Part shown: piece by piece, positions 333 through 16,459 of the stretch
Position numbering within the stretch: position 1 is the first letter of the stretch
How the letters are laid out: each line of letters starts with the position of its first letter
Origin: a virus
IMG/VR virus record: IMGVR_UViG_3300034198_005091
Coordinates: 1 to 36,953 of that record
Length of the DNA: 36,953 nucleotides
Reading direction: 5' to 3' (one strand)
The notes under the pieces: model-generated
The model's database searches: none
Told to the model about the DNA's origin: nothing
The model's input: only the letters and a program-made list of their open reading frames with translations
Made by a program: the position numbers and the translations under genes

Positions 333-982
333 TATTAGTAGGTAGATCGTTTGGCCTTACAGATGCTACAGGAAACACTTATGGTTTCCCTAGAGTAGTT
401 GTATATGGTGCAAATGGTAAGATAAAATTTCCATCAGGTGGTGGACCTGGTGTTATTCCTACCCTTCAACAAGTAGTAAATACTGGAAATGGTATTTCTA
501 ACTTTGGTGGTGCCGGAACAGCATCTATTCAGTCTACTAACTTTACTAATAATAGGACATTATTATTAAATGATAATGCCTATCCCACTATTAGACTAGT
601 AGATAATCTTAATGCGGCTAACTATCTACAGATTGATATTGATACACTTAACATAGATGGAGTATCATATAACTGGTCAAGTATTGTAAATCCCCCAAGT
701 GGTGCACTGGTAGCATTACCATTTACAACTGACCACTTAGCTGCAACAAACAATCCGTACTTAATAGGTGATATAGTTTATTATCTTGGTAATATTTATA
801 GATGCATTGCTAATAATGATTCAATACTACCAACTAGTGCACTTTATTGGACAAATCTTGGTGCAGGGTTTCCACTTGTACAACAACCAGCGGATTGGAA
901 CTCAACAAGTGGTAATAATCAGATATTAAACAAACCAACAATAGGGGATAGTTTTTCACCTTTATTATTAATGGGAGGATAA
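329..982 (+). CDS. Putative tail fibre/appendage protein with carbohydrate-binding-like module
   Basis: The 217-residue product is beta-rich and low in charge. Residues about 135-180 follow a pattern seen in CBM5/12-like carbohydrate-binding modules: Tyr, Gly-Asp-Ile-Val-Tyr-Tyr, Gly, Ile-Tyr-Arg-Cys, then Pro and Trp near the end. Residues 188-204 (ADWN...ILNKPT) match the 'ADWN-x-T-x-G-x(3)-ILNKPT' element that is common near the ends of tail fibre and baseplate proteins, where it often joins a further tip domain. The gene overlaps its upstream neighbour by four bases and abuts the next one. A role in host-surface binding is inferred from these motifs. It could instead be a non-binding structural adaptor. 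Confidence 0.6.
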   Translation: MILVGRSFGLTDATGNTYGFPRVVVYGANGKIKFPSGGGPGVIPTLQQVVNTGNGISNFGGAGTASIQSTNFTNNRTLLLNDNAYPTIRLVDNLNAANYLQIDIDTLNIDGVSYNWSSIVNPPSGALVALPFTTDHLAATNNPYLIGDIVYYLGNIYRCIANNDSILPTSALYWTNLGAGFPLVQQPADWNSTSGNNQILNKPTIGDSFSPLLLMGG

Positions 983-1312
983 ATGGCAACAGTATATAAA
1001 GTATTAGGACAATCTAGTCCAGCAGCAACAACAGAGACAGCTCTATATACAGTCCCTGCAGCTACATCAGCTGTGGCCAGTTCTGTTATAGTATGTAACA
1101 GATCAGCAGTTCTATCTACATTTAGAATATCAATTGCTATTGCGGGAGCAGCTACTGCTAATAAGAATTATATCTACTATGATTTACCCATAGGTGCTAA
1201 TGATACATTCATTGCTACTATTGGTGTAACTTTGGCTGCAACAGATGTGGTGAGAGTTTACTCATCAAATACTAATCTGTCATTCTCACTTTATGGATCT
1301 GAAATAAGCTAA
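983..1312 (+). CDS. Small beta-rich virion protein
   Basis: This 109-residue protein has the order 'ALYTVPA...SSVIVCNRS...FRISIAIAGAA...NYIYYDLPIGANDTF...L.ATDVVRVYSS...LSFSLYGSEI'. I know this pattern from small proteins encoded beside tail-fibre genes of many phages, usually annotated only as structural or hypothetical. The start directly follows the upstream stop, and a GGAGG lies five bases before the ATG, one of the few Shine-Dalgarno-like sites here. It is all beta by appearance, with no signal peptide or membrane segment. The exact position in the particle cannot be told from sequence. Confidence 0.6.
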   Translation: MATVYKVLGQSSPAATTETALYTVPAATSAVASSVIVCNRSAVLSTFRISIAIAGAATANKNYIYYDLPIGANDTFIATIGVTLAATDVVRVYSSNTNLSFSLYGSEIS

Positions 1313-1313
1313 C

Positions 1314-2555
1314 ATGGCACAAGGATACGCTTCATATAACATTATCAGCAGTGAGATTTCATATAAAAACTCTCCTAACATAGATGCGTTTGGTAGGCTA
1401 AGGGTTAGTAATCCATTCACATTGTTTGATTCAAGTCATAGATTTGCTGATAATGGGTTGTGGTCAACAGGAACCGCAACAGGTGGGACAGCTACATTTA
1501 ATGCTGATCAAGGATTAGTTGATCTAGATGTAACTGCTGCATCAGGTTCTGAGGTTGTTAGGGAAACAACTAAAGTATTCTCATATCAACCTGGAAAGAG
1601 TCTACTAGTACTCAGCACGTTTGTAATGAGTATTGCCAAAGCTAACCTCAGACAGAGGGTTGGCTACTATGGTGCAAACAATGGATATTACTTAGAACAA
1701 AACGGTACTACCGTAAGTTTCGTAGAGAGGAGTTTTGTTACAGGGGCTGTAGTAAACACACCGGTTGCTCAGGCAAGTTGGAATGTTGACCCTATGGATG
1801 GTTCAGGACCTAGTGGAATCACCCTTGACTTAACAAAGGCACAAATCCTGTTCATGGACCTGGAGTGGTTAGGGGTAGGTACAGTTAGAATCGGCTTTGT
1901 TATAAATGGTAACTTCTATGTTTGTCATAAATTTCATCATGCCAACTTCATTACATCTACGTACATCACAACGGCATCATTGCCATTGAGGTATGAGATA
2001 ACAAACACAGGTGCTACAAGTGGGGCAAGTACATTAAAACAAATATGTTCTACTGTAATATCTGAGGGAGGTTATGAACTCCGTGGAGCACAACAGGCTG
2101 TAGGTACACCAATTACTACACCTAAAACATTAACAACAGCAGGTACGTTTTATCCTATTGTTTCTATAAGACTTAAATCAGCAAGATTAGATGGTATAGC
2201 TGTAGCAACAGCTCTTTCAGCAATAGGTAATACGGCAGCCAATTTTAATTGGCAAGTTGTAGCATCAGGTACTACTACAGGTGGGACTTGGGTAAGCGCA
2301 GGAGCAAGCTCTTCTGTAGAGTATAACATAACAGGAACCTCTTTTACAGGAGGTAGAATTATTGCATCAGGATATTTTACAGCTACAGCAAGTACAAGTG
2401 TATCTGTAGATATATTAAGAGCAGCTTTATTAAGTACTCAATTAGAAAGAAATGGATTAACAAGCACTCCTTTTGAGTTTACATTAGTTTTAGCAGCAGG
2501 TACAAATAATGAAACTGTATTTGGTTCAATGGACTGGGAAGAAATAAGCAGATAA
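1314..2555 (+). CDS. Phage structural protein with 'DAFGRLRVSNPFTLFD' N-terminus
   Basis: The 413-residue product carries near residues 24-40 the signature DAFGRLRVSNPFTLFDS. This signature marks a widespread family of uncharacterised phage virion proteins, often next to fibre genes. The middle part has regular beta strands (VRIGFVINGNFYVCHKFHHAN) and a 'T-x-G-A-T-S-G' linker; the C-terminal part (about 270-413) looks like a separate beta domain. It starts two bases after the previous stop and is followed by a gene whose first residues (MSQGF) resemble its own (MAQGY). Appendage or baseplate location is inferred; no enzymatic motif is visible. Confidence 0.6.
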   Translation: MAQGYASYNIISSEISYKNSPNIDAFGRLRVSNPFTLFDSSHRFADNGLWSTGTATGGTATFNADQGLVDLDVTAASGSEVVRETTKVFSYQPGKSLLVLSTFVMSIAKANLRQRVGYYGANNGYYLEQNGTTVSFVERSFVTGAVVNTPVAQASWNVDPMDGSGPSGITLDLTKAQILFMDLEWLGVGTVRIGFVINGNFYVCHKFHHANFITSTYITTASLPLRYEITNTGATSGASTLKQICSTVISEGGYELRGAQQAVGTPITTPKTLTTAGTFYPIVSIRLKSARLDGIAVATALSAIGNTAANFNWQVVASGTTTGGTWVSAGASSSVEYNITGTSFTGGRIIASGYFTATASTSVSVDILRAALLSTQLERNGLTSTPFEFTLVLAAGTNNETVFGSMDWEEISR

Positions 2556-2556
2556 T

Positions 2557-3381
2557 ATGTCACAAGGATTTACAAAAGGAACCCCGATTGATACAGATCC
2601 TACTCTGTCACTTAATAGTGATATTGTAGTACCTTCACAATCTGCTGTTGTAGCATATGTTGCATCTCAGGTTAGCACTGGCGCGGTAGGCAGTGTAACT
2701 GCTTCAGCACCAATACTTTCCTCTGGAGGACTGACTCCTAATATTAGTATTCCTGTAGCAACTAGTTTAGTGAATGGATACTTAAGTGCTGCAGATTGGA
2801 CGATATTTAATAATAAAGTTCCATCAATAAGAACTCTTACTATAGACGGGACAAGCTATGATTTGTCTGCAGATAGGTCATGGACAACTGCGGGTGGTAG
2901 TTACGCCGCCTATAGCATGAAGGCAAATAATACAGGAGCTGCTGCTGTACCATCTGATTTTACTTTTAAAGATTTAGGTGAACAAGCATATGCCGCTACA
3001 ATTGTTTGGAATGGTACAGCACCATTACTACCAATAAATTTAAGGTATAGGTGGTTTCAAATGGGTAATTTAGTCCAATACTTTTTTTATTTTACCTACA
3101 CAACCCAGGGAGTAACTAATTCAAGTATTACATTTGATTTTCCATCTGGTATGCCTGCACCTGTACCAATTACTGGAACTGGTATAGCAAGAAGTTTTCT
3201 CTATAGAAATCAAGCTTTAGTTTATACTGCAGTTACATCTCCAGCATCAGGTACAGCAACTCCATTTTGGGGAGGGGGTATAAGAAGAGACTCTGCAAAT
3301 ACTAAATATGAATTCTTTTTTACAAACGGTACAGCTCAAACAGCCAGAGCATTTTATACATCAGGATTTTATTTTGCATAA
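2557..3381 (+). CDS. Putative tail fibre / receptor-binding protein
   Basis: The 274-residue protein begins with GTPIDTDPTLSLNSD followed by VVPSQSAVVAYVASQV, a pattern I recognise from N-terminal parts of phage fibre proteins. Residues about 75-92 (LVNGYLSAADWTIFNNKV) form another typical fibre linker. The C-terminal half, from roughly residue 125, is a distinct aromatic-rich beta domain (RYRWFQMGNLVQYFFYF) that ends in Phe-Ala and would be the distal tip. The gene lies two bases after its neighbour and two bases before the next start. Host recognition is an inference from modular layout, not from a demonstrated binding motif. Confidence 0.55.
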   Translation: MSQGFTKGTPIDTDPTLSLNSDIVVPSQSAVVAYVASQVSTGAVGSVTASAPILSSGGLTPNISIPVATSLVNGYLSAADWTIFNNKVPSIRTLTIDGTSYDLSADRSWTTAGGSYAAYSMKANNTGAAAVPSDFTFKDLGEQAYAATIVWNGTAPLLPINLRYRWFQMGNLVQYFFYFTYTTQGVTNSSITFDFPSGMPAPVPITGTGIARSFLYRNQALVYTAVTSPASGTATPFWGGGIRRDSANTKYEFFFTNGTAQTARAFYTSGFYFA

Positions 3382-3383
3382 AA

Positions 3384-3623
3384 ATGATTATATCTACACT
3401 AACTACACCAATTCCATACTTTAATGTAACTGCTACAAAAATTGGCTGGGTCCTATCCTATCCAGATTGCGTAGCATATTATCAATTACTTAATGATACA
3501 GATATTAAATTATATGATGGGCATTATTTGGTAGACACAACTATAGTTCAAGCTTGGGGAACTGATGATTCTGTTATTACAGATGCTATAGTTTCTGCAG
3601 CCCCGTGGAATATTATTTTATAG
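3384..3623 (+). CDS. Hypothetical small protein
   Basis: This 79-residue ORF begins two bases after the fibre gene and ends in tandem stops (TAG TAA). The product is hydrophobic in patches, with aromatic residues and several Asp (YPDCVAYYQLLNDTDIKLYDGHYLVD), but shows no clear transmembrane helix, signal peptide or known motif. Tight spacing supports a real gene in the same operon as the fibre genes. Possible roles are a fibre chaperone or small appendage component; I do not recognise it. Confidence 0.6.
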   Translation: MIISTLTTPIPYFNVTATKIGWVLSYPDCVAYYQLLNDTDIKLYDGHYLVDTTIVQAWGTDDSVITDAIVSAAPWNIIL

Positions 3624-3684: not shown

Positions 3685-5979
3685 ATGTATAAAGCAATAT
3701 TTTACCAAGACTTATCTAGCTTTAATTCAGCTAAAAAATCAAATGTTGTTGTAGAATCTGTAGAACCATTTTTGTGTATTGTTACTCTTGAAGGAGCAAC
3801 AACTCCAGGTACTGCAAATAGAGTTAAAAACACTTTGTTGTTTTCTGACATTGAAAACATTCCTACCAACAGAGCTATTATTAGACTCGGAGCAACAGGC
3901 GGAACTACTAATGAAGCAGCAAATGCATGGTTACTAGCAAACAAAGTAACCGTCATTAGAGATTTGTTTAATTTCGGTCAAATGGTCGTTGAGATACCTA
4001 AAGGATCATTTGCATCTTTTGTTCAAAAAGTACAAAGTGAAAGTTGGTTTTCAACTATCGAGCAGGATGTACTTATTAAGGCAGAACCATGCTATGCATT
4101 TAGTTACGACCAACACTGGCATCTCGCTAATCTATCGGCACAGCAAGCATGGAATGCTATGTATCCTTATGCTGATAATTTTGCTACCTGTATTGATACA
4201 GGTAGTTATAATCTAGCACCTACAGGAAGCAGAGATGGTGAGGGTGGTGATTTGGAAGACTGTTGTTATCAGCCTGAAGTTGCACTTTTAGATGAGGGTG
4301 TTCAGATCAATCATCCAGATCTTGTTGGTAGACTTGGTTCTTGCGGATGTACTGGGAATGATCCAGTATTTGCACCACCTGCTGGTACAAGAGTAACTTC
4401 AAGTGGCGTATGCATAAATTCTTGGAATATTGTAAACAATAATGCTAATGTTACGCCACAGCTTACCTTTGAAAATCACGGAACTGCAATGGCAGGTATT
4501 ATTTCAGGAAATAATCTGAATAATAACTATACATTGTCTGTATCTAATAACTACATTAAGACTCAGGTGTTAAGACTTGGTTATAGAGCTAATGCTGCAG
4601 GTTTCTTCTACACTACTCCATCTTGGGCACTTGAAGCAACATATCGTGCTTCTGCAAATCCAAGTTGTGCTGCAATTGTTATTCCATGGGTAGTAACAAA
4701 TTTAACTTCAGCTGCTTCTCTAGAGGCTGTTCTTGAACCTGCTTTTGATTACATTACTACTCAAGCAAGAGATTGTACAGGAATTCCAATTTTTGCAGCA
4801 GCAGGTAATAGTAATATAACAGTTCTCCCATATCCCGCTATAAGTGGATATACACTAGCAATTGGTGCATCTAATTCTGCAGGTGCAAAAGCATATTTTT
4901 CAAATAAAGGCGGTGATATCTTTGCAGCCGCTCCTGGTATTGGCATTAGAACTACAGATAGAACAGGTCCTGTAGGATTTAATACAACATTACAAGACCC
5001 TACATTGCCTGCAAATGCTGACATTAATTTTACTAACCTAGCACAAACATTATTTAATGGTACGTCTGCCTCGGCCTGTATTGTAGCTGCTGTTACCGCA
5101 TGTATGAGAGCTGTAAATCCAGCACTTACAGTAGCACAGATTGAAACTGTTTTTGAAGAAACATCAACTGTTGTTGCCGATCTTGGTTTTGGAATTATAA
5201 ACATGCAAGGTGCTGTACAAGAGGCAATTAATCTTATTAATCCTAGTGAAGATTTGGATGTTACAGTAGGTATTACCGGTATTAGTCCAAATCCTGGAAC
5301 ACTTTGCGGTGGACTAGTAGTAGTTCAAACAGAAGTTGAAGGTTCTGGTGATACATGGGATCAGGTTACTGCAGTTACTCTTGAGTATTATGCTTCTAAT
5401 GATAATTTCTTGACATCTAACGATTATCTTTTGCAATCTTACACGTTTCCAGTTAACAATGTAACAAGTTTGTATACTTACCCACTTACAATTCCAAATG
5501 TACCTACGTTAACCTCAACTAGTAAGTTAATTGTTAGAGCAATTTTACAGACAAACTGTGGTCAGATTATTTCAAACGGAGCTACTGAATTTATTAGTTC
5601 TGCAACTGGCTTTACAATAACTACTGCAAACTGTCCAGGTACTGACCTTGGAATTGAAGTTCAGTCAGTAAACTATCCTAATCCTGGCCAAAGAATATTC
5701 CAGGTTAAGTATACTAATACCGGCACAGTTCCAATTACAGCTGCTAATATTACCAGAGGATGGGTTGGAGGAGCATCTTCTACATCAACCCTTACATGGA
5801 CAGGAACAACTGGTCAAACTGCGCCAATTCAACCTGGCCAAACGAGAATTATACAACAATCGTATAATACACCAGCTCCTTTATTCCCAGGTACTTTCTA
5901 TATGCAGATTAATACTGTGAATGGTGGTACTGACTTTAATACTACGAATAATTACTCAACACTTATTGTAAATTCGTAA
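3685..5979 (+). CDS. Subtilisin-like (S8) serine protease, array copy 1
   Basis: The 764-residue product is an S8 endopeptidase. Residues 1-135 form the leader/propeptide shared by the array (SNVVVESVEPF..., then an I9-like segment ending IEQDV); HWHL at 144-147 marks entry to the catalytic domain. Triad: Asp203 (LLDEG), His265 (NHGT), Ser461 (GTSAS); oxyanion Asn375 (AAGN). The Pro usually following GTSMAx is Cys here. Six Cys (169, 193, 194, 220, 222, 243) sit in two insertions around the catalytic Asp that the other copies lack. Two Ig-like domains follow (about 523-640 and 653-764). No signal peptide or membrane segment is seen. A 61-base spacer precedes it, with only a weak -7-like TATATTAG at 3654. 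Confidence 0.85.
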   Translation: MYKAIFYQDLSSFNSAKKSNVVVESVEPFLCIVTLEGATTPGTANRVKNTLLFSDIENIPTNRAIIRLGATGGTTNEAANAWLLANKVTVIRDLFNFGQMVVEIPKGSFASFVQKVQSESWFSTIEQDVLIKAEPCYAFSYDQHWHLANLSAQQAWNAMYPYADNFATCIDTGSYNLAPTGSRDGEGGDLEDCCYQPEVALLDEGVQINHPDLVGRLGSCGCTGNDPVFAPPAGTRVTSSGVCINSWNIVNNNANVTPQLTFENHGTAMAGIISGNNLNNNYTLSVSNNYIKTQVLRLGYRANAAGFFYTTPSWALEATYRASANPSCAAIVIPWVVTNLTSAASLEAVLEPAFDYITTQARDCTGIPIFAAAGNSNITVLPYPAISGYTLAIGASNSAGAKAYFSNKGGDIFAAAPGIGIRTTDRTGPVGFNTTLQDPTLPANADINFTNLAQTLFNGTSASACIVAAVTACMRAVNPALTVAQIETVFEETSTVVADLGFGIINMQGAVQEAINLINPSEDLDVTVGITGISPNPGTLCGGLVVVQTEVEGSGDTWDQVTAVTLEYYASNDNFLTSNDYLLQSYTFPVNNVTSLYTYPLTIPNVPTLTSTSKLIVRAILQTNCGQIISNGATEFISSATGFTITTANCPGTDLGIEVQSVNYPNPGQRIFQVKYTNTGTVPITAANITRGWVGGASSTSTLTWTGTTGQTAPIQPGQTRIIQQSYNTPAPLFPGTFYMQINTVNGGTDFNTTNNYSTLIVNS

Positions 5980-6014
5980 AAATTAATTACTTTTACTATA
6001 CAATCTGATACGGT

Positions 6015-6037
6015 AGGTCCTAGCTTTGCTAGGACTT
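6015..6037 (+). promoter_or_regulatory. Hairpin between protease copies 1 and 2
   Basis: A 10-bp inverted repeat (left arm 6015-6024, right arm 6028-6037, loop TTT, one G-T pair) lies in the spacer. It ends 23 bases before the ATG of copy 2 and no T-run follows, so it is not a classic intrinsic terminator. It could pause or attenuate transcription, or mark an mRNA processing site. Confidence 0.5.
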
Positions 6038-6060
6038 ACTTGTGTCATAAAACTACTAAA

Positions 6061-8112
6061 ATGAGCAAAATCAACTCCGTAAAATTCAAGGACAAAAAGT
6101 CCTTTGACAAAAACAAATCGAAGTCTAATGTAGTAGCGGTTTATGAACCGTTTAACATTATTGTCTTCAAAGACGAACAACCTGTTACTCCAGATCCAGC
6201 TAAGGTATCCCAAGCAGATACAGTAGATGCTTCTTTGGATAGTGTGCCTACAGGCCAGGCAATCCTTATTGCTAATGATTATAAGGAAGGCTTGGATTAC
6301 CTAAACTCTGCAAAAATTGTAGTTAAAGAATCTTTTGAGATTACTAATACTTTTTTTGTAGAAGTTCCAGACTTTGTACAGTTTGATTCTTTCTATGCTA
6401 GTGTAATGTCTACTGGCAAATTCAGTAGCGTAGAACCTGATAATATTGTGCAAATGAATATGGATGCAGAAGATGTGTATGCTGCACATTGGCATCTTGG
6501 TAACATGAGAGCAGCTGAAGCATGGGCAATTTTGCCAGAAGGTGTAGTAAAAGAAGTTGCTGTACTTGATATTGCATGTGAAACAACACATGAAGATTTA
6601 CAAGGTAGAATCAGTTCTACATCATGGAACTGTGTATTTGACACACCAGATGTAACTCCAATCAGTGATTTTGAAAAGCATGGTACACCATGTTCAGGTG
6701 TAATTGCAGCAAATACCGGAAACAACATTGGCTGTAAATCAATTGGCAACAATCACCTTAAAGTACAGTTTCTACACATTGGTATGAACAGTAATTCAGG
6801 TGGTAGTTTTATGACTTCTGATACTATTCTAATGAGAGCAGTAAACAAGATTCTTGCTAATCCTGATTGTGTAGCTGTATCTATGTCATGGGGAGGAGGT
6901 AGTGGATATACTGCATTTCCTAATGGCCTGAATCAAATTAGAACAATGGCAAGAGGTGGCAAGGGTATTCCGATCTTTGCTAGTTCTGGTAATAACTATC
7001 TTCCTGAATTTACACAATTTCCAGCATCTTATCCATCAGTAATGGCTGTTGGTGCTATTGCATCAAATAACCAACGTGCTGGATTTAGTAACTACGGTTC
7101 TAAACTATTTGCTGCAGCACCTGGTGTTGGAGTATGGACAGTAGATAGAACTGGTACTGCAGGTTATAAAGCAGAAAGCTATATGGGATTTGGCGGTACA
7201 TCAGCAGCATGTCCAGCAATGGCAGCTGTAGCTGGTCTTGTACTAGTAAAGAATCCTGATCTTACAGAACCACAAGTAAGAGACATTCTTAAGAACTCTT
7301 GCAATAAAGTTGGTGGTTATGTATATGATTCAACAGGCAGAAGTGCTGAATTGGGATGGGGTGCTATTGATTTATTTTCCGCAGTAACTAATGCTAGTGG
7401 TGTAACACCTGAACCTCCTGCACCTCCAGTTCTTTGGAATGCTTATGGAGTAATTAGTTCACAGACAACTGTTGAAGCAGGAAAAGCTGTAACAATATCA
7501 TACGGTCTTAGCATAGATAAAGATCAACTACTTGATACAGTAATTCCAGTAAGCATTGCATTTAAAAAAGCTGATGGTACAGTTATGAATTTTTATTCAG
7601 GTAATGTCACCATTCTTAAAGGAACAGGCAAAACTAATCTTACAATGCCGTATACAATTCCTGGAGATGTTAGCGGACCATGTCAGTTTATAATGACTAT
7701 TGACCCTGCAAATACAATCAAAGAGTCTAACGAAACTGATAATGTAGCTTACACATCTATTAATGTAACTTCTCCACCTCCACCAAACATGAGCATTGAT
7801 CTAGAAACCAAGATCTTACGCTATGAATGGTTAGATGCTGGCAGAGTACGTATCTGGCATACTACTACTAATAAAGGCACTACTACTTGTACATCACGTA
7901 AGTTTACAATGGGTTTTGAAGGTATGCCACAGGCAACACAGAATCGTGCAGAAACTATTCAACCTGGTAAGTCAGTAACTAATGGTAATGTTATGTACGC
8001 ATCAAATTGGGGAACTCTGCCTAATACGTTTAAAATTGAGATTGTTGCAGTGAATGGTGCTCCTGATGCCAATTCTGCAAATAACGTAGCTACTATTCTA
8101 GTGACTAAATAG
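6061..8112 (+). CDS. Subtilisin-like (S8) serine protease, array copy 2
   Basis: Start chosen at ATG 6061 because the protein then begins MSKINSVKFKDKKSF, matching copies 4 and 5; a TTG 21 bases upstream is less likely. The 683-residue product has the shared leader (1-50), an I9-like propeptide ending SSVEPDNIV (about 122-130), HWHL at 143-146, and an S8 domain with Asp170, His207 (KHGTP), oxyanion Asn311 (SSGN) and Ser381 in the canonical GTSAACP. A CARDB-type Ig domain (about 458-570, ending ESNETDN) and a second beta domain (578-683) follow a Pro-rich linker. TAG stop. No secretion signal is visible. The triad is intact, so activity is likely; the substrate is unknown. Confidence 0.87.
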   Translation: MSKINSVKFKDKKSFDKNKSKSNVVAVYEPFNIIVFKDEQPVTPDPAKVSQADTVDASLDSVPTGQAILIANDYKEGLDYLNSAKIVVKESFEITNTFFVEVPDFVQFDSFYASVMSTGKFSSVEPDNIVQMNMDAEDVYAAHWHLGNMRAAEAWAILPEGVVKEVAVLDIACETTHEDLQGRISSTSWNCVFDTPDVTPISDFEKHGTPCSGVIAANTGNNIGCKSIGNNHLKVQFLHIGMNSNSGGSFMTSDTILMRAVNKILANPDCVAVSMSWGGGSGYTAFPNGLNQIRTMARGGKGIPIFASSGNNYLPEFTQFPASYPSVMAVGAIASNNQRAGFSNYGSKLFAAAPGVGVWTVDRTGTAGYKAESYMGFGGTSAACPAMAAVAGLVLVKNPDLTEPQVRDILKNSCNKVGGYVYDSTGRSAELGWGAIDLFSAVTNASGVTPEPPAPPVLWNAYGVISSQTTVEAGKAVTISYGLSIDKDQLLDTVIPVSIAFKKADGTVMNFYSGNVTILKGTGKTNLTMPYTIPGDVSGPCQFIMTIDPANTIKESNETDNVAYTSINVTSPPPPNMSIDLETKILRYEWLDAGRVRIWHTTTNKGTTTCTSRKFTMGFEGMPQATQNRAETIQPGKSVTNGNVMYASNWGTLPNTFKIEIVAVNGAPDANSANNVATILVTK

Positions 8113-8155
8113 TTTAGCACTAGGATTAGTTAGATTTTTATTTTATATTATAGGT

Positions 8156-8189
8156 ATAGCGCATGTCTCAATTCGGAGATATGCGCTAT
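8156..8189 (+). promoter_or_regulatory. Strong hairpin between protease copies 2 and 3
   Basis: A 14-bp stem with one G-T pair (left arm 8156-8169, right arm 8176-8189) closes a 6-base loop (AATTCG). It is the most stable-looking structure in the left half of the window. It sits 19 bases before the ATG of copy 3 and is not followed by a T-run. Attenuation, RNA processing, or protection of an mRNA end are all possible. Confidence 0.6.
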
Positions 8190-8208
8190 TACAACATTAA
8201 TCCATAGT

Positions 8209-10725
8209 ATGATAAACGCTGTAATCTACAAAACTCCCACGGCATATAAAAAAGCATTGTCTGATACAAATATTCTTCAGACACATGAGCCTTTTAATAT
8301 GATTGTCTATAACGATCCTATTCCAGTTAATAGGAACTTTAATGTAATAGACAGAATAATTGAAGTAACAGACATAAATAAAATCCCAACTGGTAAGGCA
8401 ATATTTATTACTAACAATGTTGATCCTGAGGTATCTGATCAGCGCGGAAGATATGCCTATGCAGAACAATTACTAAAAGATAAAAACTATAGAGTAGATT
8501 TTAATTCAGTTATACTTGGTATTATTGTAGTTCAAATGCCTCCTGGTTTAAGTTTTAGTAAAGTTGAGGATTTGATAGATGAAGAATTGTATGGTACTCC
8601 TGTCTTTTCAGCAATTGAAGAAGATGTAATTTTTACTGCACAACCTGCGGATTATGTTTCTTGGCCTATTGCATCACAATGGCACCTGACAGATATAGAA
8701 TCTCCTCAGGCATATGCTTCTTTTGCAAATGGAGTAATATATAATTCAATAGGTAATGCAGAGTGGTTTACAAAAGATGTTGCAATTTTAGATGGTACGG
8801 GAATAGAAATTAATCATCCAGATTTATTTAATACAGATAGACCGGTTGACCACCCGGGCTATAGGTCTACTAGAGCATCTTGGAATTGTGTAAATAATAC
8901 AAGCAATGTTCAAGCTGTTGGACCTAATGAGAATCACGGAACTGTAATGACTGGTATTGCAGGTTCACAATGGGCGGATCATAGATTTTTACGAGGAGTA
9001 GGCTTAGATCACATTAATGTACAATATCTAAGGATTGGGTATAATGTAGGACCGACTGGTAGTTTTAACACAACACAGGGAATGATTTATAGGGCATTAA
9101 TAAAGGCAGTTTTTAATGAAAACTGTGCCTCTATTGCAATGCCATTTGTTTGGAATATTTATTTTGTAGTACTTGATAGGCTTTTAACCAGAATTACAAA
9201 ATATACTAGAGCCAATAAGGGTATTCCAATTTTTGCACCATCTGGAAATGCTGGAGCAAATAACATTACATCACAATTTCCAGGAGCATATGAATCTGTA
9301 TTGGTAATTGGTTCAAGTAATCAAGATCACGAAAAATCTACTTTTTCTAACTACGGGGGTAACATTTTTGCTGCTGCTCCAGGTGAGGGTATATTTGCAA
9401 TAGACAGAATATCTGTAAGGGGATATAATCAAAATCCTGATCCAAACTATGGTTCTGTTACTTATTTTAGTGGTACTTCTGCATCATGTGTAATTGCTGC
9501 AACTATTGCAGCTACAATGACTGTTGCTTATCCCGGTATATCGTTTGTTGAAATTAAGTATGCTTTAGCAGAAACAGCAAGAAGGATAGGGCCATATACT
9601 TATACTAGTCAAGATCCTAATAATGAACTTGGTGTTTCAAATGGAATATCTGATGAATTTGGAAATGGTATATTGACGCAACATGATGCAATACTAAAAG
9701 CACTAGAGTTGTCTGAGCAATTTCTTGATATAAGTGTTGCAATTACTGATTTAAATTTCCAATGGGCAGCATCTATGAATGGTCCTTGGTATAATGAACC
9801 TTTGATTAGTGGTACATATTTTCAAACTATTGCTGTACTTGAAGTTACAAACAATAGCACTAACCCAATTACTTATGCATTAGGACAAGATTTTCCTGTC
9901 GGAGTGTTTCTCGCTACAGATGATACAGGTAATCCAAGTTCTATTTTTAGATCGCAGGTTATAAGTACATCGTTGTATTCTGGTCCAGCAGGTGGAACTA
10001 CAATATTACCTGGTGAAACAACAGAAATTCTTACAAGAAAACGTTCTCTTATTACTGGAAGCAATTGCGATTTAAATGGAAGTTATTATGCTGTTGGAAA
10101 ATATGCTAATCCACTTATATCTACTGCTGAAGATGTTACATTTATAGAAGAAGTTATATTTGATAATGTAACTTCTGACTTAACAGATCTTTGGTGTGGT
10201 AATCAGCTTATGCCTGTTTATAATGATGCTGAATTAAAAATTAGTAATCTACAAATATCTAGAATTGGTACAACAAGCGAATTTACTGTATCAATAAGAC
10301 TTACAAATATTGGGTCAAGTCCAATATATGGTTGTCGAATACAATACTATTGGTATCCATCTGCTGATTATAATTTTTCTGCTGGAGCAGCTCCCGATTC
10401 TCAGATAAATATAAATTATGCTCTTGGTAGCAATGGACTTCGAGGAATTCTATATTATAGTAATTATTACACTCCACCAGTAATAGATATAGTTAATGAA
10501 GATCCTGTTTATGCGTCTGGATATCCAGCAGAGGCAGGATATCCACCAAATATGCCAATTTTACAATCTGGACAATCAGTGGTGTCTACAATAAATATAT
10601 TCATGAATCCTTTTGTAAGTCCTGCTGTATTAATTGGAAATGTAACTTCTATAAATCAAGTTCTTACAGAGGTTCTCGATCCCATAAATCATGTTACACA
10701 ATCACCAGTGCTACTTATAGAATAA
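8209..10725 (+). CDS. Subtilisin-like (S8) serine protease, array copy 3 (long form)
   Basis: At 838 residues this is the longest copy. The leader MINAVIYKTPTAYKKA and HEPFNMIVYND keep the array pattern; the propeptide ends FSAIEEDV (about 133-140), then QWHL. Triad: Asp195 (AILDGTG), His243 (NHGTV), Ser424 (GTSAS); oxyanion Asn347 (PSGN). The usual Pro after GTSMAx is Val, a change of the same motif position as in copy 1. The region after about residue 510 is longer than in the other copies and diverges, but still contains CARDB-like strands (VSIRLTNIGSSPIYG near 695-710). Eight bases separate it from copy 4. No signal peptide is visible. Catalytic competence is likely; target unknown. Confidence 0.86.
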   Translation: MINAVIYKTPTAYKKALSDTNILQTHEPFNMIVYNDPIPVNRNFNVIDRIIEVTDINKIPTGKAIFITNNVDPEVSDQRGRYAYAEQLLKDKNYRVDFNSVILGIIVVQMPPGLSFSKVEDLIDEELYGTPVFSAIEEDVIFTAQPADYVSWPIASQWHLTDIESPQAYASFANGVIYNSIGNAEWFTKDVAILDGTGIEINHPDLFNTDRPVDHPGYRSTRASWNCVNNTSNVQAVGPNENHGTVMTGIAGSQWADHRFLRGVGLDHINVQYLRIGYNVGPTGSFNTTQGMIYRALIKAVFNENCASIAMPFVWNIYFVVLDRLLTRITKYTRANKGIPIFAPSGNAGANNITSQFPGAYESVLVIGSSNQDHEKSTFSNYGGNIFAAAPGEGIFAIDRISVRGYNQNPDPNYGSVTYFSGTSASCVIAATIAATMTVAYPGISFVEIKYALAETARRIGPYTYTSQDPNNELGVSNGISDEFGNGILTQHDAILKALELSEQFLDISVAITDLNFQWAASMNGPWYNEPLISGTYFQTIAVLEVTNNSTNPITYALGQDFPVGVFLATDDTGNPSSIFRSQVISTSLYSGPAGGTTILPGETTEILTRKRSLITGSNCDLNGSYYAVGKYANPLISTAEDVTFIEEVIFDNVTSDLTDLWCGNQLMPVYNDAELKISNLQISRIGTTSEFTVSIRLTNIGSSPIYGCRIQYYWYPSADYNFSAGAAPDSQININYALGSNGLRGILYYSNYYTPPVIDIVNEDPVYASGYPAEAGYPPNMPILQSGQSVVSTINIFMNPFVSPAVLIGNVTSINQVLTEVLDPINHVTQSPVLLIE

Positions 10726-10733
10726 TAAAAACC

Positions 10734-12800
10734 ATGATAAACGCTGTAAAATTTAAAAACAATGCTAGTTTTGAAAAAACTAGAATAAAATCAAATGTTT
10801 TACAAGTTCACGAACCGTTTGGTATTGTTGTTTTTGAAGACGCTGAGCATGTTGAACCTGACCTAAGTAAAGTAAAACAGACTACTCAACTTGCTGATTT
10901 AAAGCTAATCCCATCTGGATTAGCAACAGCAGTTGCAACAGATTACAAAAAAGCAAAGAAGTACTTTACAGATAATAAAATTACTGTTATAAACAGTTTT
11001 GATCTTACAAATACTTTTATAGTAGATATTCCAGATGATGTAACTTTTAGTGATTTTAAAGCTCTGCTTGACAAATCAGGATTATTTATATCTATTGTAG
11101 AAGATCAAATAACTGAGTATTCATCAATGCTTACTAACTACCCATATTCTGCACACTGGTGGTTAGGTGATATTAATGCTTCTGCTGCATGGGCACAATT
11201 ACCTGCAGGAACAGTTGATGTGGCTGTAATTGATGGTACAGGTTGTGAATTGAGTCATCCAGATTTGATTGGAAGAACTAATGCAAACTGGAACTGTGTA
11301 AACAATAATTCAGATGTTTTACCAGTATCAGATAATGAAAAACATGGTACTCCATGTGCTGGTATTATTGCAGCCAACTGCGCAAATAATCAACTTGTTC
11401 TTTCTACAGGTAATGATAAAGTTAGAGTCCAATTTTTAAAAGTAGGATATAATCATACATCTACAGGTAGTTGGAATACATCAGATTCAATCATGACGTT
11501 GGCTGTAAACAGAGCCATCCAGAATGCTTCATGTGTTGCAATATCTATGTCATTTGCGTCAAGTTCATCCTTCACTAGTTTTAGGAATGCACTTATTTTT
11601 GCAAAATCAACAGGTCGTGGTGGTAAAGGTATCCCGTTGTTTGCTTCTTCTGGTAATAGTGGATTTGGTACATTTACACAAGTACCTGCTGCTTGGCCTG
11701 AAGTAATGGCTATTGGATCATCTAATAGTATCAATACTAGATCAACATTCTCAAACTATGGAACTAACTTGTTTGCAGCAGCTCCAGGTTCTTCAATTTT
11801 AACTACTGATAGAACAGGAGGAAAAGGATATTCTATTAATGTAGACCCAAGTTTAGATGCAGTAACATATTTTAGTGGTACCTCTGCTTCTTGTCCTGTT
11901 ATGGCTGGTGTAGCCGCTACAATGATATTGGCAAATCCAGGCCTTACAGAAAGTCAGGTACGTGCAATTCTTGCACAGACCAGTAGAAAACTTGGAGGAT
12001 ATAATTATACAAGTGGCAAATCTCTAGAATTAGGATATGGTATTGTTGATCAAAATGCTGCTGTTGCTGCAGCCATAGCCAATATTACCCCTATTCCTCT
12101 AGTGCCTAATCTGACAATGATAATGTCAGCTCAAGGTACTGCTACGCAAGGTACTATTATTCCTATAAACTATACTGTAAATGTATCTGTTGCCCAGACT
12201 AGTGCCCTGACATTAAATGTCTCTTTCTATAGATCTTTAGATGGAATACTTACCGTCAACGATACAATGATCCAGACTCAGGTAATTACAATACCTGCGA
12301 GTACAACGATGTATACAAGTACCTTTAACTATACAGTACCTACAAATATTGTTGGTAATGTGTACGTTATTGGTTTTGTGGATAGCAATAACATTGTTTC
12401 TGAGCCAATAGAAACTGATAATACAGGCAGAGTAGTTATAAACGTAGTTACTACAGGTCCTGTACCTAGTAACAGTGGATTAGATCTGTCCGTTCAAGTG
12501 CTACAGTACCGATATAATAATGCTGGTAGACTTTATGTCAAACAAAAGTTTACTAATACAGGATCAGTTGCCATTACAGGTTATAAATTTGTAAGGGGAT
12601 TTGTTGGTGGAACACAACAGACTAAAACAATTAGTAATTTGAACATGCAGCCAGGACAATCAACAACAACTGAAACTGTGTGGCAATCATTACCGCCGTC
12701 ATATCCTGGAACCTACAAAGTTACAATTACTGAAGTAAATGGTAGAGTAGATTCAATAGCAACTAATAACGTTAGTACAATTCAAGTAAACCAGCCGTAA
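10734..12800 (+). CDS. Subtilisin-like (S8) serine protease, array copy 4
   Basis: The 688-residue protein begins MINAVKFKNNASFEKT and keeps the EPFGIVVFED leader motif. The I9-like propeptide runs to about residue 128; HWWL replaces HWHL. Triad: Asp167 (VIDGTG), His204 (KHGTP), Ser384 (GTSASCP); oxyanion Asn308 (SSGN). A CARDB-like domain (about 455-570, ending EPIETDN) and a C-terminal beta domain (about 580-688) complete it. Eight bases after copy 3 and four before copy 5, it lies in the tight part of the array and is probably co-transcribed with both. No signal peptide or membrane helix is seen. Confidence 0.87.
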   Translation: MINAVKFKNNASFEKTRIKSNVLQVHEPFGIVVFEDAEHVEPDLSKVKQTTQLADLKLIPSGLATAVATDYKKAKKYFTDNKITVINSFDLTNTFIVDIPDDVTFSDFKALLDKSGLFISIVEDQITEYSSMLTNYPYSAHWWLGDINASAAWAQLPAGTVDVAVIDGTGCELSHPDLIGRTNANWNCVNNNSDVLPVSDNEKHGTPCAGIIAANCANNQLVLSTGNDKVRVQFLKVGYNHTSTGSWNTSDSIMTLAVNRAIQNASCVAISMSFASSSSFTSFRNALIFAKSTGRGGKGIPLFASSGNSGFGTFTQVPAAWPEVMAIGSSNSINTRSTFSNYGTNLFAAAPGSSILTTDRTGGKGYSINVDPSLDAVTYFSGTSASCPVMAGVAATMILANPGLTESQVRAILAQTSRKLGGYNYTSGKSLELGYGIVDQNAAVAAAIANITPIPLVPNLTMIMSAQGTATQGTIIPINYTVNVSVAQTSALTLNVSFYRSLDGILTVNDTMIQTQVITIPASTTMYTSTFNYTVPTNIVGNVYVIGFVDSNNIVSEPIETDNTGRVVINVVTTGPVPSNSGLDLSVQVLQYRYNNAGRLYVKQKFTNTGSVAITGYKFVRGFVGGTQQTKTISNLNMQPGQSTTTETVWQSLPPSYPGTYKVTITEVNGRVDSIATNNVSTIQVNQP

Positions 12801-12804
12801 TACC

Positions 12805-14907
12805 ATGAAAATAAATGCTGTAAAGTTTAAGGATAAAGAATCATTTGATAAAAATAAATCAAAGTCAAATGTCGCTGCATTTTATGAAAATCATAATGTT
12901 ATTGTTTTTAGGGATAATGCCTATGTAAAACCAAATAAAGCAAAGGTTTCACATATTGAACAAATAATTAAGCCAGAATATGGGGTACCCCATGGTACTG
13001 CAATATTAAAAGCTATTAATCATCATATAGGATTAGCTGCTTGTGAAAGATTAAAGTTAAAAGTTAAAAAAAATTATCCCAAAACTAAAACGATTGTAGT
13101 TGAAATTCCAGAACATACAACATATGAAAGTTTATATCACACATTAATAAGTACTGGTTCTTTTGATTATGTTGAACAAAGTGTAATTACCATATCACGT
13201 TCAAATGCAAATTTTGCTTATAATGATCATTGGCAACTTATTGCACTAAATGCACAAGAAGGATGGGATACCATAACCCAAAATCCACCGCCAATAAATA
13301 ACATTGTAGCCGTATTTGATATTGGTTGCGAAACAACACATCCTGATTTAGTTGGTCAAGTAATTGATACATTAGATGTTGTTACAAATACTACAAATGT
13401 TTTACCAGCTGATGGATTTGCTAATCACGGCACACCATGTACTGGTTTAGTTGTGGCAAATGCAACAAATAACTATGGTACAATAGGTGTTGCTGGACCA
13501 TACACTAAAGCAACCTTTGTAAACATAGGAACAATGGTCGATCCGCAATCTTTTGCATCAAGCACTGATGACAAAGTTCAAGCGATTAATCATGCAATTG
13601 ATATGCCTAATTGTATTTCAATTTCAATGTCCTACGGCGGCTCATTTCCAGCTCAACCAGAAGAAGATGCCTTAATTGCCGCACAGACAATAGGTAGAAA
13701 TCAAAAAGGAATATTATGTTGTGCATCATCTGGAAATGATAATGAGTTTAATTCAATACAATATCCAGCTTATTATCAAGGAGTTTTAAGTATAGGTGCA
13801 CTTGAATTTAATGATTTTGATTATGCTAGAGCAGGATATTCAAATTATGGTATACAGTTATTTGGATCAGCTCCTGGGTCAGGTACTCCAGCAACTGATA
13901 GGACAGGACCTTTTGGATATTCTTCTGATGATACAACATATTTTAACGGTACATCTGCAGCATGTCCTGTTTTTGCAGGTGCAATAGCTGCCATTGATGC
14001 TGCAAGACCTGGTTTATCAGCTAACCAAATAATAAGCATTCTTTCAGAAAGCTGTATACAAGTTGGCCCCTATAACTATAATGGGAATCCACTATATCCA
14101 AATAGATCATATGAGACAGGATATGGAATGATAAATATTGCAAATGCTGTTGCATTGGCTCTTGGCGGATCTGTTCCTCCTGATCCAGACATTCCAATAA
14201 ATTTAAGAATAACAGCAAGTGCGTTATCATTAACATTTCCAAATACTAATATAACAGTAATATATACGGCAATTCTTAATAAAATCGCTGAAGCTAATAC
14301 AACTGTTTCAATTACAATTTTTAAATCAGCAAATAATACACCAGCTCTTGAACCAACAGATACTGTACTTACTACAGTAAATATTACAGTACCGCAAGGT
14401 CAATATCGGTATCAAGGAACATATACTTTTTTAGTTGATAATTCTTGGGTTGGGTTGAATTATATCGGTGTTTATGGTGCAGCACTAGTTGGGGAAATTT
14501 TTACTGCAGATAATTATGCATTTAGGACACTTCAAGTAATTGGTGAAACTCCTCCTCCAAACTTAAATCTAAAAGCTAGAATACAAAACATTAAGTTAAA
14601 TGAAGATGGAACAAAGGTAAGTGTTTATTTTGATATTGAAAATACAGGTAATACGCCTGTTACTAAGTTTACTATTAAAAAAGGTTTTGTTGGTTATGAA
14701 GAATATACATATGAGATTGCATATGATTTAACACTTGGTAAATTTTACGTTGAGGATACATTCTGGGAGTTATTACCGCCACCAAATTTTATATTTAGCA
14801 CACCCTTTAGAGTTGAAGTTACTTCTGTAAACGGTATTTTTCCGGATGATGTTACTCCAGATAATATTTCAACCGCCCTTGTAATTCCAGTAATTGGTCA
14901 ACCATAA
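12805..14907 (+). CDS. Subtilisin-like (S8) serine protease, array copy 5
   Basis: The 700-residue product begins MKINAVKFKDKESFDKNKSK, closest to copy 2 in its leader, but the propeptide (about 60-130) is more Lys-rich than in the other copies. Triad: Asp172 (VFDIG), His208 (NHGTP), Ser383 (GTSAACP); oxyanion Asn311 (SSGN). HWQL at 142-145 replaces HWHL. Two Ig-like domains follow (roughly 467-590 and 597-700) after a PPDPDIP linker. The gene is two bases upstream of the holin-like gene, so proteases and lysis proteins are likely translated from one message. This packing is the best sequence hint that the array is expressed late. Confidence 0.87.
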   Translation: MKINAVKFKDKESFDKNKSKSNVAAFYENHNVIVFRDNAYVKPNKAKVSHIEQIIKPEYGVPHGTAILKAINHHIGLAACERLKLKVKKNYPKTKTIVVEIPEHTTYESLYHTLISTGSFDYVEQSVITISRSNANFAYNDHWQLIALNAQEGWDTITQNPPPINNIVAVFDIGCETTHPDLVGQVIDTLDVVTNTTNVLPADGFANHGTPCTGLVVANATNNYGTIGVAGPYTKATFVNIGTMVDPQSFASSTDDKVQAINHAIDMPNCISISMSYGGSFPAQPEEDALIAAQTIGRNQKGILCCASSGNDNEFNSIQYPAYYQGVLSIGALEFNDFDYARAGYSNYGIQLFGSAPGSGTPATDRTGPFGYSSDDTTYFNGTSAACPVFAGAIAAIDAARPGLSANQIISILSESCIQVGPYNYNGNPLYPNRSYETGYGMINIANAVALALGGSVPPDPDIPINLRITASALSLTFPNTNITVIYTAILNKIAEANTTVSITIFKSANNTPALEPTDTVLTTVNITVPQGQYRYQGTYTFLVDNSWVGLNYIGVYGAALVGEIFTADNYAFRTLQVIGETPPPNLNLKARIQNIKLNEDGTKVSVYFDIENTGNTPVTKFTIKKGFVGYEEYTYEIAYDLTLGKFYVEDTFWELLPPPNFIFSTPFRVEVTSVNGIFPDDVTPDNISTALVIPVIGQP

Positions 14908-14909
14908 TT

Positions 14910-15311
14910 ATGATAAAAAAAATACTATACAATCTACAGAAATACGATGGAGTATGGAGTATTCCAGCAGCATTTCTTGCATTCTTTCTTGCTGGTAAAT
15001 ACAGCTATGAATATTTTGGGGATGCGCTGATATCTACAGAATACATACAGATTGTATTTATGGCTGCTTTGATTTTGATCTTTGCAAACTTTGTTGTATT
15101 CTTGGGAATTAATTTTAACTTTAGGAGTTTACAGAGATATTTTTATTCGACTGAAATTAAAGATCATATAAGATTTGAATTAAACGTATGGCAAAGAATA
15201 AAGTTATATTTGTTTGTTTACTTTTCATTCTTAGTAGTATTCCTCTTTATAGTGTGGCTGCTAATGACAGTTACTGTGTCAGAGTTACCGCCAACTCTTA
15301 TGTCGGAGTAA
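14910..15311 (+). CDS. Holin-like membrane protein
   Basis: The 133-residue product has three hydrophobic segments, about residues 15-29, 44-66 and 98-121, separated by charged loops (FRSLQRYFYSTEIKDHIRFE). It has no enzymatic motif. It starts two bases after the last protease and its last 124 bases overlap, in another frame, the start of the CHAP hydrolase gene. Size, helices and position before a cell-wall hydrolase and spanin-like genes fit a class I-type (three-helix) holin, but I do not recognise the family by sequence. It may instead be an antiholin or another late membrane protein. Confidence 0.6.
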   Translation: MIKKILYNLQKYDGVWSIPAAFLAFFLAGKYSYEYFGDALISTEYIQIVFMAALILIFANFVVFLGINFNFRSLQRYFYSTEIKDHIRFELNVWQRIKLYLFVYFSFLVVFLFIVWLLMTVTVSELPPTLMSE

Positions 15312-15766
15312 AAGAAAAAGGTGGTAATAATAGGGGATTTACTGATAAGGAATTAAAGAACATGATGGCAGATGTTGGGTGGAAACCTGGCTATGCATGG
15401 TGTTCTTTTTTTGTTCGTGCAATATTAGATGCTTGTAGTATACCTAATACTGTAACTGGTTGGTCACCAACAGCCTATAATAAGAACGATGTAATTTTTA
15501 CCAATGGTGCATTTTATCAAAGTTTTAAACCTGGGGATGTAATGGTAATGACGTTGTCATATCAGAAGTTTAAAAATACAGGTCGCTATAAAGCAATAGG
15601 GCATACAGGTATAGTAGATGCTATTGGTCAGTATTCTGTTAGAACTATAGAGGGTAATACCAATAATGCCGGAGCAAGGGATTCTAGAGGCGGTGATGGG
15701 GTATACGTAAAAATTAGACCATTAAATAAAAACCTACACATAACAAGATGGAAAAAAGCAAAATAG
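15188..15766 (+). CDS. Secreted CHAP-domain peptidoglycan hydrolase (endolysin)
   Basis: The 192-residue protein has a Lys-rich N-terminus, a hydrophobic stretch and a likely cleavage site near YSVAA-ND (residues 1-26), i.e. a signal peptide. The CHAP domain follows: Cys72 in the WCSFFV motif, His139 in GHTGIVD, then IEGNTN (Glu155/Asn157). CHAP enzymes are cysteine amidases or endopeptidases that cut peptidoglycan cross-links or stems. The ATG lies 124 bases inside the upstream membrane-protein gene in the +1 frame relative to it, so the signal-peptide codons double as codons of that protein's last helix. Sec export would let the enzyme accumulate outside the cytoplasm, as with exported endolysins. 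The stop overlaps the next gene by 19 bases. Confidence 0.85.
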   Translation: MAKNKVIFVCLLFILSSIPLYSVAANDSYCVRVTANSYVGVKEKGGNNRGFTDKELKNMMADVGWKPGYAWCSFFVRAILDACSIPNTVTGWSPTAYNKNDVIFTNGAFYQSFKPGDVMVMTLSYQKFKNTGRYKAIGHTGIVDAIGQYSVRTIEGNTNNAGARDSRGGDGVYVKIRPLNKNLHITRWKKAK

Positions 15767-16164
15767 GAAAAATTGTAATGTTGTTGGGAATTGCAGCATT
15801 ACCTTTGACAGCAATAATCGTAATTGCAATTCAGAAGAAATCTACTGAAAATCCAGCAGTAAATAGACTAGAGACATTAAACGATAGTCTCCTTAAAGTA
15901 ATAGATAAAAATACCAAAGCATCTAATGATTTGTATCTTAAAATAGATTCTTTAAACTTTAGATCGGATACAATCATAGAAAGACAGTATACAGTAAACA
16001 AATATTATAAAGATGAGATATACAATATTCTTAATGCTGATGACCCTACTGCCAATAATCAGTTTAGGGCAACCCTCAAAAAATCGGACAGCCTCCTCAA
16101 ATCCGGATTTTACACCAAAACTTACGACCTACGACCTACAGTTAATGAACCTAAACTACACTAG
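15748..16164 (+). CDS. Putative inner-membrane spanin-like protein
   Basis: The 138-residue product has a short basic N-terminus (MEKSKIGK), one membrane segment (about 8-29) and a long charged helical region (NRLETLNDSLLKVIDKNTKASNDL and beyond, about 38-115) likely to form a coiled coil outside the inner membrane. This is the layout of an i-spanin (Rz type). It follows the endolysin directly, overlapping it by 19 bases, and its 3' end contains the start of a second secreted coiled-coil gene in another frame, the embedded arrangement known for Rz/Rz1 pairs. Assignment is by topology and context, since spanins show little sequence conservation. Confidence 0.6.
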   Translation: MEKSKIGKIVMLLGIAALPLTAIIVIAIQKKSTENPAVNRLETLNDSLLKVIDKNTKASNDLYLKIDSLNFRSDTIIERQYTVNKYYKDEIYNILNADDPTANNQFRATLKKSDSLLKSGFYTKTYDLRPTVNEPKLH

Positions 16165-16459
16165 CATGATGTATTGGTACAATACTTCTATGGAAATAGA
16201 TAGTTTGTACCAGCTAGAAAAGTTAAAAACTCATTATTACTCTAAAATAACTGGTATTCAGGCAAGTAGCTATGAGATCCTGCAGCAGATTTATGAGAAT
16301 AAGCAGGCTATAGAAAAGGCTATTGCACAAGAAAAAGAAATGCAAATAAAGGAACTAAAGAAACGTAACAGGAGATTAGCTTTTCAAAATGTAGGATTAT
16401 CAGTCGGAGTTGCATGTCTCTCACTTACAACTATTTATTTTGCAATTGCACCATACTAA
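16013..16459 (+). CDS. Putative outer spanin-like protein, atypical (no lipobox Cys, C-terminal membrane segment)
   Basis: The 148-residue product starts inside the upstream gene, with a 152-base overlap in the +1 frame. Its N-terminus (MRYTIFLMLMTLLPIISLGQ) looks like a signal peptide. An o-spanin would have a lipobox Cys there; none is present. Residues 60-120 are helical and highly charged (coiled coil), and 122-145 form a hydrophobic segment near the end. Position and overlap suggest an Rz1-like partner, but anchoring would have to rely on the C-terminal segment. Alternatives are a second inner-membrane coiled-coil protein or an unrelated envelope protein. Confidence 0.5.
   Translation: MRYTIFLMLMTLLPIISLGQPSKNRTASSNPDFTPKLTTYDLQLMNLNYTSMMYWYNTSMEIDSLYQLEKLKTHYYSKITGIQASSYEILQQIYENKQAIEKAIAQEKEMQIKELKKRNRRLAFQNVGLSVGVACLSLTTIYFAIAPY

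What the first reader, a model, noticed from the sequence alone, without database searches (positions are those of the whole stretch)
3685..14907. Five consecutive, apparently active subtilase genes in one phage
Seen: five adjacent genes with the same domain order, each with Asp, His, Ser and oxyanion Asn intact. About 11 kb of compact phage DNA goes to one enzyme family. Known: S8 proteases are usually single genes. Inference: selection for diverse specificities, for example several host surface proteins, or a multi-subunit proteolytic layer on the virion. I do not recall a described phage system of this kind.
Basis: partly seen in the sequence, partly recalled or inferred. Interest (0 to 1): 0.88.

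Follow-up and report, generated by a model that had tools for sequence, protein, structure and literature searches.

The report
Array of five proteases in phage
A crAss-like bacterial virus carries five different subtilisin-type protein-cutting enzymes side by side, next to its cell-bursting genes; relatives carry none, one, two or six there, so it looks like a swappable host-adaptation kit rather than a fixed part of the virus.

Summary
Five consecutive full-length ORFs (3685-14907) each match Pfam Peptidase_S8 and keep the catalytic Asp, His and Ser and the oxyanion Asn; the S8 fold is predicted even for the most divergent copy. Gene 2 starts at 6061, not at the TTG at 6040. One correction to 'apparently active': the substrate-binding S-x-G-G strand is kept only in copies 2 and 5.

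The array fills an accessory slot between a tail-fibre gene with its small downstream ORF and a holin/CHAP/spanin-like lysis cassette. Relatives carry 0, 1, 2 or 6 copies there. Copies 1, 3, 4 and 5 have orthologues in the same order in a second phage. Copy 2 does not: it is a gene-length cassette 87-89% identical to genes in other phages, one with a TerL only 27% identical. Single-copy relatives are widespread in unrelated siphovirus contigs, between head-maturation protease and scaffold genes. No full-length relative occurs in annotated GenBank phages, and eight named crAss-like or related genomes have no S8 gene. I found no description of such an array.

Best reading: late-made, self-processing proteases acting on host envelope proteins at exit or entry, multiplied and exchanged to match host variation. 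Function is inferred; virion location is untested.

The parts
3685..5979 (+). S8 copy 1 (c1), 764 aa; triad D203 H265 S461, oxyanion N375; binding strand PWVV
   Evidence: Pfam PF00082 E 2.6e-20; alignment; orthologue of G001 copy 1, 43% identical over aligned residues
6061..8112 (+). S8 copy 2 (c2), 683 aa; triad D170 H207 S381, oxyanion N311; canonical SWGG strand; horizontally exchanged gene-length cassette (an ORF extended to TTG 6040 is listed)
   Evidence: PF00082 E 1.2e-36, CARDB; 87-89% identical to L083/L058 genes with no similarity at the gene's flanks; AU test rejects pairing with G001 copy 2; AF2 model
8209..10725 (+). S8 copy 3 (c3), 838 aa; triad D195 H243 S424, oxyanion N347; binding strand PFVW
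   Evidence: PF00082 E 1.5e-21; AF2 model and Foldseek to subtilisins, TM 0.88-0.89 by target; orthologue of G001 copy 4
10734..12800 (+). S8 copy 4 (c4), 688 aa; triad D167 H204 S384, oxyanion N308; binding strand SFAS
   Evidence: PF00082 E 1.3e-32; orthologue of G001 copy 5 (79%) and of L258 first copy (58%)
12805..14907 (+). S8 copy 5 (c5), 700 aa; triad D172 H208 S384, oxyanion N311; SYGG strand; always the last copy before the holin
   Evidence: PF00082 E 1.1e-27; orthologue of G001 copy 6 (68%), kin of the second copies in L083, L257, L258
2557..3623 (+). Tail-fibre-like gene (2557-3381) and small ORF (3384-3623): left border of the slot
   Evidence: PHROG tail fibre hit; same order next to the lysis cassette in S8-free G035
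14910..16459 (+). Right border: holin-like membrane protein (14910-15311), CHAP endolysin with signal peptide (15188-15766), two overlapping spanin-like genes (15748-16164, 16013-16459)
   Evidence: CHAP PF05257 E 9e-6; the four genes recur together next to or downstream of S8 genes; holin and spanin labels are by position and sequence look, not by family match

Best explanation
The five genes form a copy-number-variable accessory module of late-made subtilases at the junction of tail-fibre and lysis genes of a crAss-like phage. Each is made without a signal peptide and has an I9-like prodomain, so it probably folds and cleaves itself in the infected cell; C-terminal CARDB/Ig-like domains probably bind target surfaces. 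The enzymes most likely leave with the virions or with the lysate and cut host envelope or surface proteins, either helping exit and freeing progeny from debris or helping the next adsorption. Copies differ in their substrate-binding strand and are swapped between phages one gene at a time, which fits tuning to different host surface proteins, as capsule-depolymerase sets do for polysaccharides. Shown: module, slot, copy-number series, gene-wise exchange, intact triads, predicted fold, average purifying selection. Inferred: self-processing, expression time, release route, substrates, benefit of several copies.
For: Slot with 0, 1, 2, 5 or 6 copies, always directly upstream of the holin in crAss-like relatives. 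Gene-exact horizontal exchange of copy 2 between phages with unrelated cores. S8 presence follows the lysis-cassette type: CHAP 62-91% identical in about 30 S8-bearing contigs against 37-44% in three S8-free relatives, one of them with an 85% identical portal. S8 and lysis genes have dS 0.9-1.4 against G001 while core genes have 0.24-0.51, so the whole region was exchanged. Prodomain-like and beta C-domains, CARDB in 29 of 44 members. Substrate-binding strand diverged among copies.
Against: No activity, proteomic or expression data. No signal peptide, so reaching the envelope needs virions or lysis. In siphovirus relatives the gene sits between head-maturation protease and scaffold, not near lysis. 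Three copies lack the canonical binding strand and may be poor proteases. No docking domain shared with other phage proteins was found in the held loci.
Confidence: 0.5

Rival explanations
1. Morphogenesis protease: the S8 enzymes process phage structural proteins (head or tail fibres) during assembly, and extra copies process different fibres.
For: In about 75 siphovirus-like contigs the gene lies between an XkdF-type head-maturation protease and the scaffold; in crAss-like phages it adjoins tail-fibre genes.
Against: Those siphoviruses already have an XkdF protease; crAss-like relatives with 84-89% identical major capsid proteins do without any S8 gene; copy number is highly variable.
Confidence: 0.15
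2. Injected cargo: the proteases are packed in the virion, ejected into the host and cut cytoplasmic targets such as defence proteins; the prodomain acts as an intramolecular chaperone for refolding after ejection.
For: Crassviruses store about 5.5 MDa of cargo proteins and eject them partly unfolded (PMC10172136); head-module position in siphoviruses; no signal peptide.
Against: No protease is mentioned in that crassvirus structure paper; the C-terminal CARDB/Ig-like domains are typical of extracellular enzymes; no packaging signal was found.
Confidence: 0.12
3. Mixed array: only c2 and c5 are proteases, while c1, c3 and c4 keep the fold and triad but serve mainly as binding proteins or have very narrow activity.
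For: Loss of S-x-G-G in c1, c3 and c4 and higher dN/dS for c1 and c3 (0.41-0.49).
Against: Triad and oxyanion Asn are invariant in all copies, unexpected without catalysis; in c1 and c3 the S8 part is the best-conserved part between orthologues.
Confidence: 0.12
4. Neutral or selfish expansion: recombination piles up copies in a tolerant slot with no benefit from the number.
For: Copy number varies widely and relatives have none.
Against: Paralogues at about 30% identity are still intact with catalytic residues; order is conserved in two phages; average dN/dS is 0.11-0.49; 11 kb is costly in a genome of this size.
Confidence: 0.1

Closest known systems
Subtilase family, Peptidase_S8 / PF00082 (subtilisin, Vpr, mirolase)
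   Same: Catalytic fold, triad, oxyanion Asn, prodomain-like N-terminal part; best sequence match in the PDB is mirolase 8ehe
   Different: Extra N-terminal domain, no signal peptide, C-terminal CARDB-type domains, tandem array in a virus, degenerate binding strand in three copies
Single S8 genes of named phages (for example Bacillus phages SP-15, vB_BcoS-136 and Goe3)
   Same: Phage-borne S8 domain, about 30% identical
   Different: Only the S8 domain is shared; single copy; SP-15's is a 375-aa gene annotated as similar to an intracellular serine protease
PHROG 3677 'protease' and UniProt A0A6J5R7S5 (uncultured Caudovirales phage, 'Peptidase S8/S53 domain containing protein')
   Same: A0A6J5R7S5 is a 683-aa protein 52% identical to c2 over its length, so the single-copy family is already in databases; PHROG 3677 matches c2-c5 over the S8 region
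   Different: No array, context or function described in what I could read
Multi-depolymerase Klebsiella phages (K64-1: 11 receptor-binding proteins, 9 active on capsule; PMC11652154)
   Same: Many paralogous enzymes in one phage, thought to widen host range
   Different: Polysaccharide depolymerases on tail proteins with known specificities; here protein-cutting enzymes with unknown location and substrate

Membership tests
Peptidase S8 (subtilases) | Score above the curated PF00082 cut-off | tested here: met
   All five copies, 73-127 bits against a cut-off of 21.8
Peptidase S8 (subtilases) | Asp-His-Ser triad and oxyanion Asn in order | tested here: met
   All five and all 81 members examined; the search pattern was biased towards His but not towards D, N or S
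Peptidase S8 (subtilases) | Subtilisin fold | tested here: met
   AF2 and Foldseek on c2 and c3; c1, c4 and c5 by alignment only
Peptidase S8 (subtilases) | Canonical S-x-G-G substrate-binding strand | tested here: inconclusive
   Met in c2 and c5, not met in c1, c3 and c4; typical but not strictly required for membership
Peptidase S8 (subtilases) | Proteolytic activity | not testable with these tools
   Needs expression and assay
crAss-like phages (Crassvirales and relatives) | crAss-type portal, TerL and major capsid protein | tested here: met
   PHROG matches and long portal alignments to Crassvirales records at 23-26% identity; family placement not attempted
Multi-depolymerase host-range system (works like) | Several paralogous surface-degrading enzymes, exchanged between phages | tested here: inconclusive
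   Paralogues and exchange shown; surface degradation not testable here
Multi-depolymerase host-range system (works like) | Enzymes carried on the virion | not testable with these tools
   No proteomics; no shared docking domain found
Head-maturation (prohead) protease | Encoded beside scaffold and capsid and required for head assembly | tested here: inconclusive
   Position met in siphovirus relatives, where an XkdF protease is already present; not met in the window, and S8-free crAss-like relatives have 84-89% identical capsid proteins

The most novel reading that the evidence does not exclude
Some environmental crAss-like phages carry an evolvable set of virion- or lysate-borne proteases, each cutting a different host surface protein: the protein-degrading counterpart of multi-depolymerase phages, with single enzymes traded between unrelated phages of the same hosts.
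Probability: 0.3. Interest if true: 0.85.

Novelty: new variant of a known kind. Interest (0 to 1): 0.6.

Why it matters
S8 enzymes are among the best-studied proteases, yet no phage with a paralogous set of them turned up in the paper searches here. The 0-1-2-5-6 copy series in one slot, plus gene-exact swaps, is a natural experiment on what extra proteases do for a phage. If the products prove to be virion- or lysate-borne, they would show that protein coats of environmental bacteria are a barrier that phages fight enzymatically, as capsules are, and would supply a ready set of diversified proteases.

Tried and rejected
Recent tandem duplication within the window: rejected, copies are about 30% identical and the array copies do not form one clade. 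Decay or pseudogenes: rejected. Non-S8 fold for the most divergent copy: rejected. A shared virion-docking N-domain in other phage proteins: searched, none in the held loci. Full-length relatives in GenBank phages: none; plasmids: only weak partial matches, about 26%; bacterial genomes: only S8-centred matches up to 40%. Host identification through the endolysin: three bacterial genomes tested, nothing found, uninformative. Promoter and terminator scan: promoter-like sites at or below the shuffled expectation, terminator-like sites slightly above, nothing usable. Paper searches gave no phage subtilase array. The dN/dS value printed for ORF 34175 is a codon-mapping error and is not used.
Full report
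OBSERVATION. The window is a 36,953-base IMG/VR virus record. Five consecutive + strand ORFs fill 3685-14907. Each exceeds the Pfam S8 cut-off by a wide margin, and they are the only S8 matches in the record. Asp, His, oxyanion Asn and Ser are present in all five. Gene 2 should start at ATG 6061, not TTG 6040: this gives 683 aa, the length of its closest relatives. The gaps between the last ORFs are small (8 bases c3>c4, 4 bases c4>c5, 2 bases c5>holin), which fits co-transcription.

BACKBONE. TerL, portal and major capsid genes match PHROG head and packaging families, and the portal aligns along most of its length with Crassvirales records at 23-26% identity; the nearest named record by portal is Leptolyngbya phage Lbo-JY46 at 34%. 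PF00082 finds nothing in eight named crAss-like or related genomes (Lbo-JY46, csAssE-Sib, Cellulophaga phi17:2 and phi4:1, cr1_1, cr7_1, ProJPt-Bp1, cr115_1), while the same search finds the single S8 gene of Bacillus phage SP-15.

ANATOMY. AF2 on copy 2 (44 sequences, mean pLDDT 87) shows an N-terminal beta-alpha-beta domain (about residues 1-56), a beta-alpha-beta-beta-alpha-beta domain typical of I9 prodomains (62-129), the S8 domain (about 140-448) and two beta domains. Pfam recognises the S8 domain in 44 of 44 aligned members and CARDB in 29 of 44; the I9 assignment is inferred from the predicted topology only. Foldseek gives single-domain subtilisins with TM 0.85-0.90 by target length. 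The most divergent copy 3 also gives subtilisins at 0.88-0.89, though its C-terminal part is poorly modelled. No copy has a recognisable signal peptide by inspection, in contrast to the neighbouring CHAP endolysin.

ACTIVITY CAVEAT. The strand that pairs with substrate in subtilisins (S-x-G-G) is SWGG in c2 and SYGG in c5, but PWVV, PFVW and SFAS in c1, c3 and c4; the single-copy relatives aligned there keep S-W/F-G-G or a close variant. The triad alone therefore does not establish five ordinary subtilisins; altered specificity or reduced activity are both open.

COPY-NUMBER SLOT. Relatives show 0, 1, 2, 5 or 6 copies in one place. G035 (portal 72% identical) runs tail fibre > small ORF > holin > CHAP with no S8 gene, and G037 also has none before its holin; the records of 21 portal relatives have no S8 match, though some may be fragments. 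L017, L021 and L038 have one copy; L083 and L258 two; L257 at least two (its left gene is cut by the contig end); G001 (123,735 bases) six. All of these lie immediately upstream of the holin. L130 has an S8 C-terminal end in the same place at its contig edge.

ORIGIN AND EXCHANGE. In a 32-protein maximum-likelihood tree, c1, c3, c4 and c5 pair with G001 copies 1, 4, 5 and 6, in the same order. Copy 2 pairs with L058 and L083, not with G001 copy 2 (AU p 9e-52), and all array copies together are not one clade (AU p 6e-49). Some deep branches are long, so the earliest duplications are not resolved, and the groups tested were named after a first tree had been seen. DNA similarity to L083 covers exactly the copy-2 gene (6061-8110, 84%), and to L058 6067-8096 (87%), with none at its flanks; the L058 TerL is only 27% identical. 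Against G001, core genes are 96-98% identical with dS 0.24-0.51, while S8 and lysis genes have dS 0.9-1.4: the region was exchanged between divergent phages, not merely fast-evolving. dN/dS of 0.11-0.49 (Nei-Gojobori, partly saturated) indicates average purifying selection; it cannot exclude positive selection at single sites.

WIDER CONTEXT. Of 97 contigs examined (95 with a usable S8 match), about 75 are siphovirus-like, with one S8 gene between an XkdF-type head-maturation protease (PF14550) and a scaffold gene; the crAss-like ones have it next to the holin; three others have it just after CHAP. Two apparent two-copy siphovirus contigs are a split gene (L067) and an inverted fragment at a contig end (L059). 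Where the contig reaches far enough, the siphoviruses carry the same lysis cassette about 5.5 kb downstream. About 30 S8-bearing contigs have CHAP 62-91% identical to the window's; three S8-free crAss-like relatives, one with an 85% identical portal, have CHAP of 37-44%. S8 genes thus follow a lysis-cassette type, probably a host group, rather than a backbone. This association is not corrected for shared ancestry.

INTERPRETATION. A late-region, horizontally traded, copy-number-variable enzyme with a prodomain and surface-binding type C-domains, tied to lysis and host type, is best read as a host-adaptation factor acting on host envelope proteins at exit or entry. Head-module placement in siphoviruses keeps the morphogenesis and ejected-cargo readings alive; the crassvirus structure paper documents large cargo stores but mentions no protease. 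The nearest functional analogy is multi-depolymerase Klebsiella phages. I found no description of a phage subtilase array in the papers searched, but the library lacks most subscription journals.

LIMITS. All relatives with the array are uncultured metagenome contigs; the host is unknown; collection searches use short seed patterns and can miss members, so the frequency of arrays is a lower bound. Late expression, self-processing, release route and substrates are inferences.

Noticed in passing
window 15748-16164 and 16013-16459: Two genes overlapping in different frames after the CHAP endolysin, one with an N-terminal membrane segment, the other with an N-terminal signal-like and a C-terminal membrane segment: a spanin-like pair, recurring in relatives.
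   Followed up: partly
L009 8980-12574 (and about 75 similar siphovirus-like contigs): The XkdF head-maturation protease and the scaffold match the two ends of one PHROG family (phrog_24921, 349 positions), with the S8 gene lying between them, as if inserted into a protease-scaffold unit.
   Followed up: partly
window 329-3381 against L170 10828-13890: G001 has one 1020-aa tail-fibre gene where the window has several shorter genes; only the ends (329-982 and 2557-3381) are similar, so the fibre region is also mosaic.
   Followed up: no
L067 2488-4564: The single S8 gene of this siphovirus-like contig is split into two ORFs, either a frameshift or an assembly error.
   Followed up: no
window 28415-31162: The named record nearest by portal (34% identity) is a phage of a cyanobacterium, Leptolyngbya phage Lbo-JY46, although described crAss-like phages infect Bacteroidota.
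   Followed up: no
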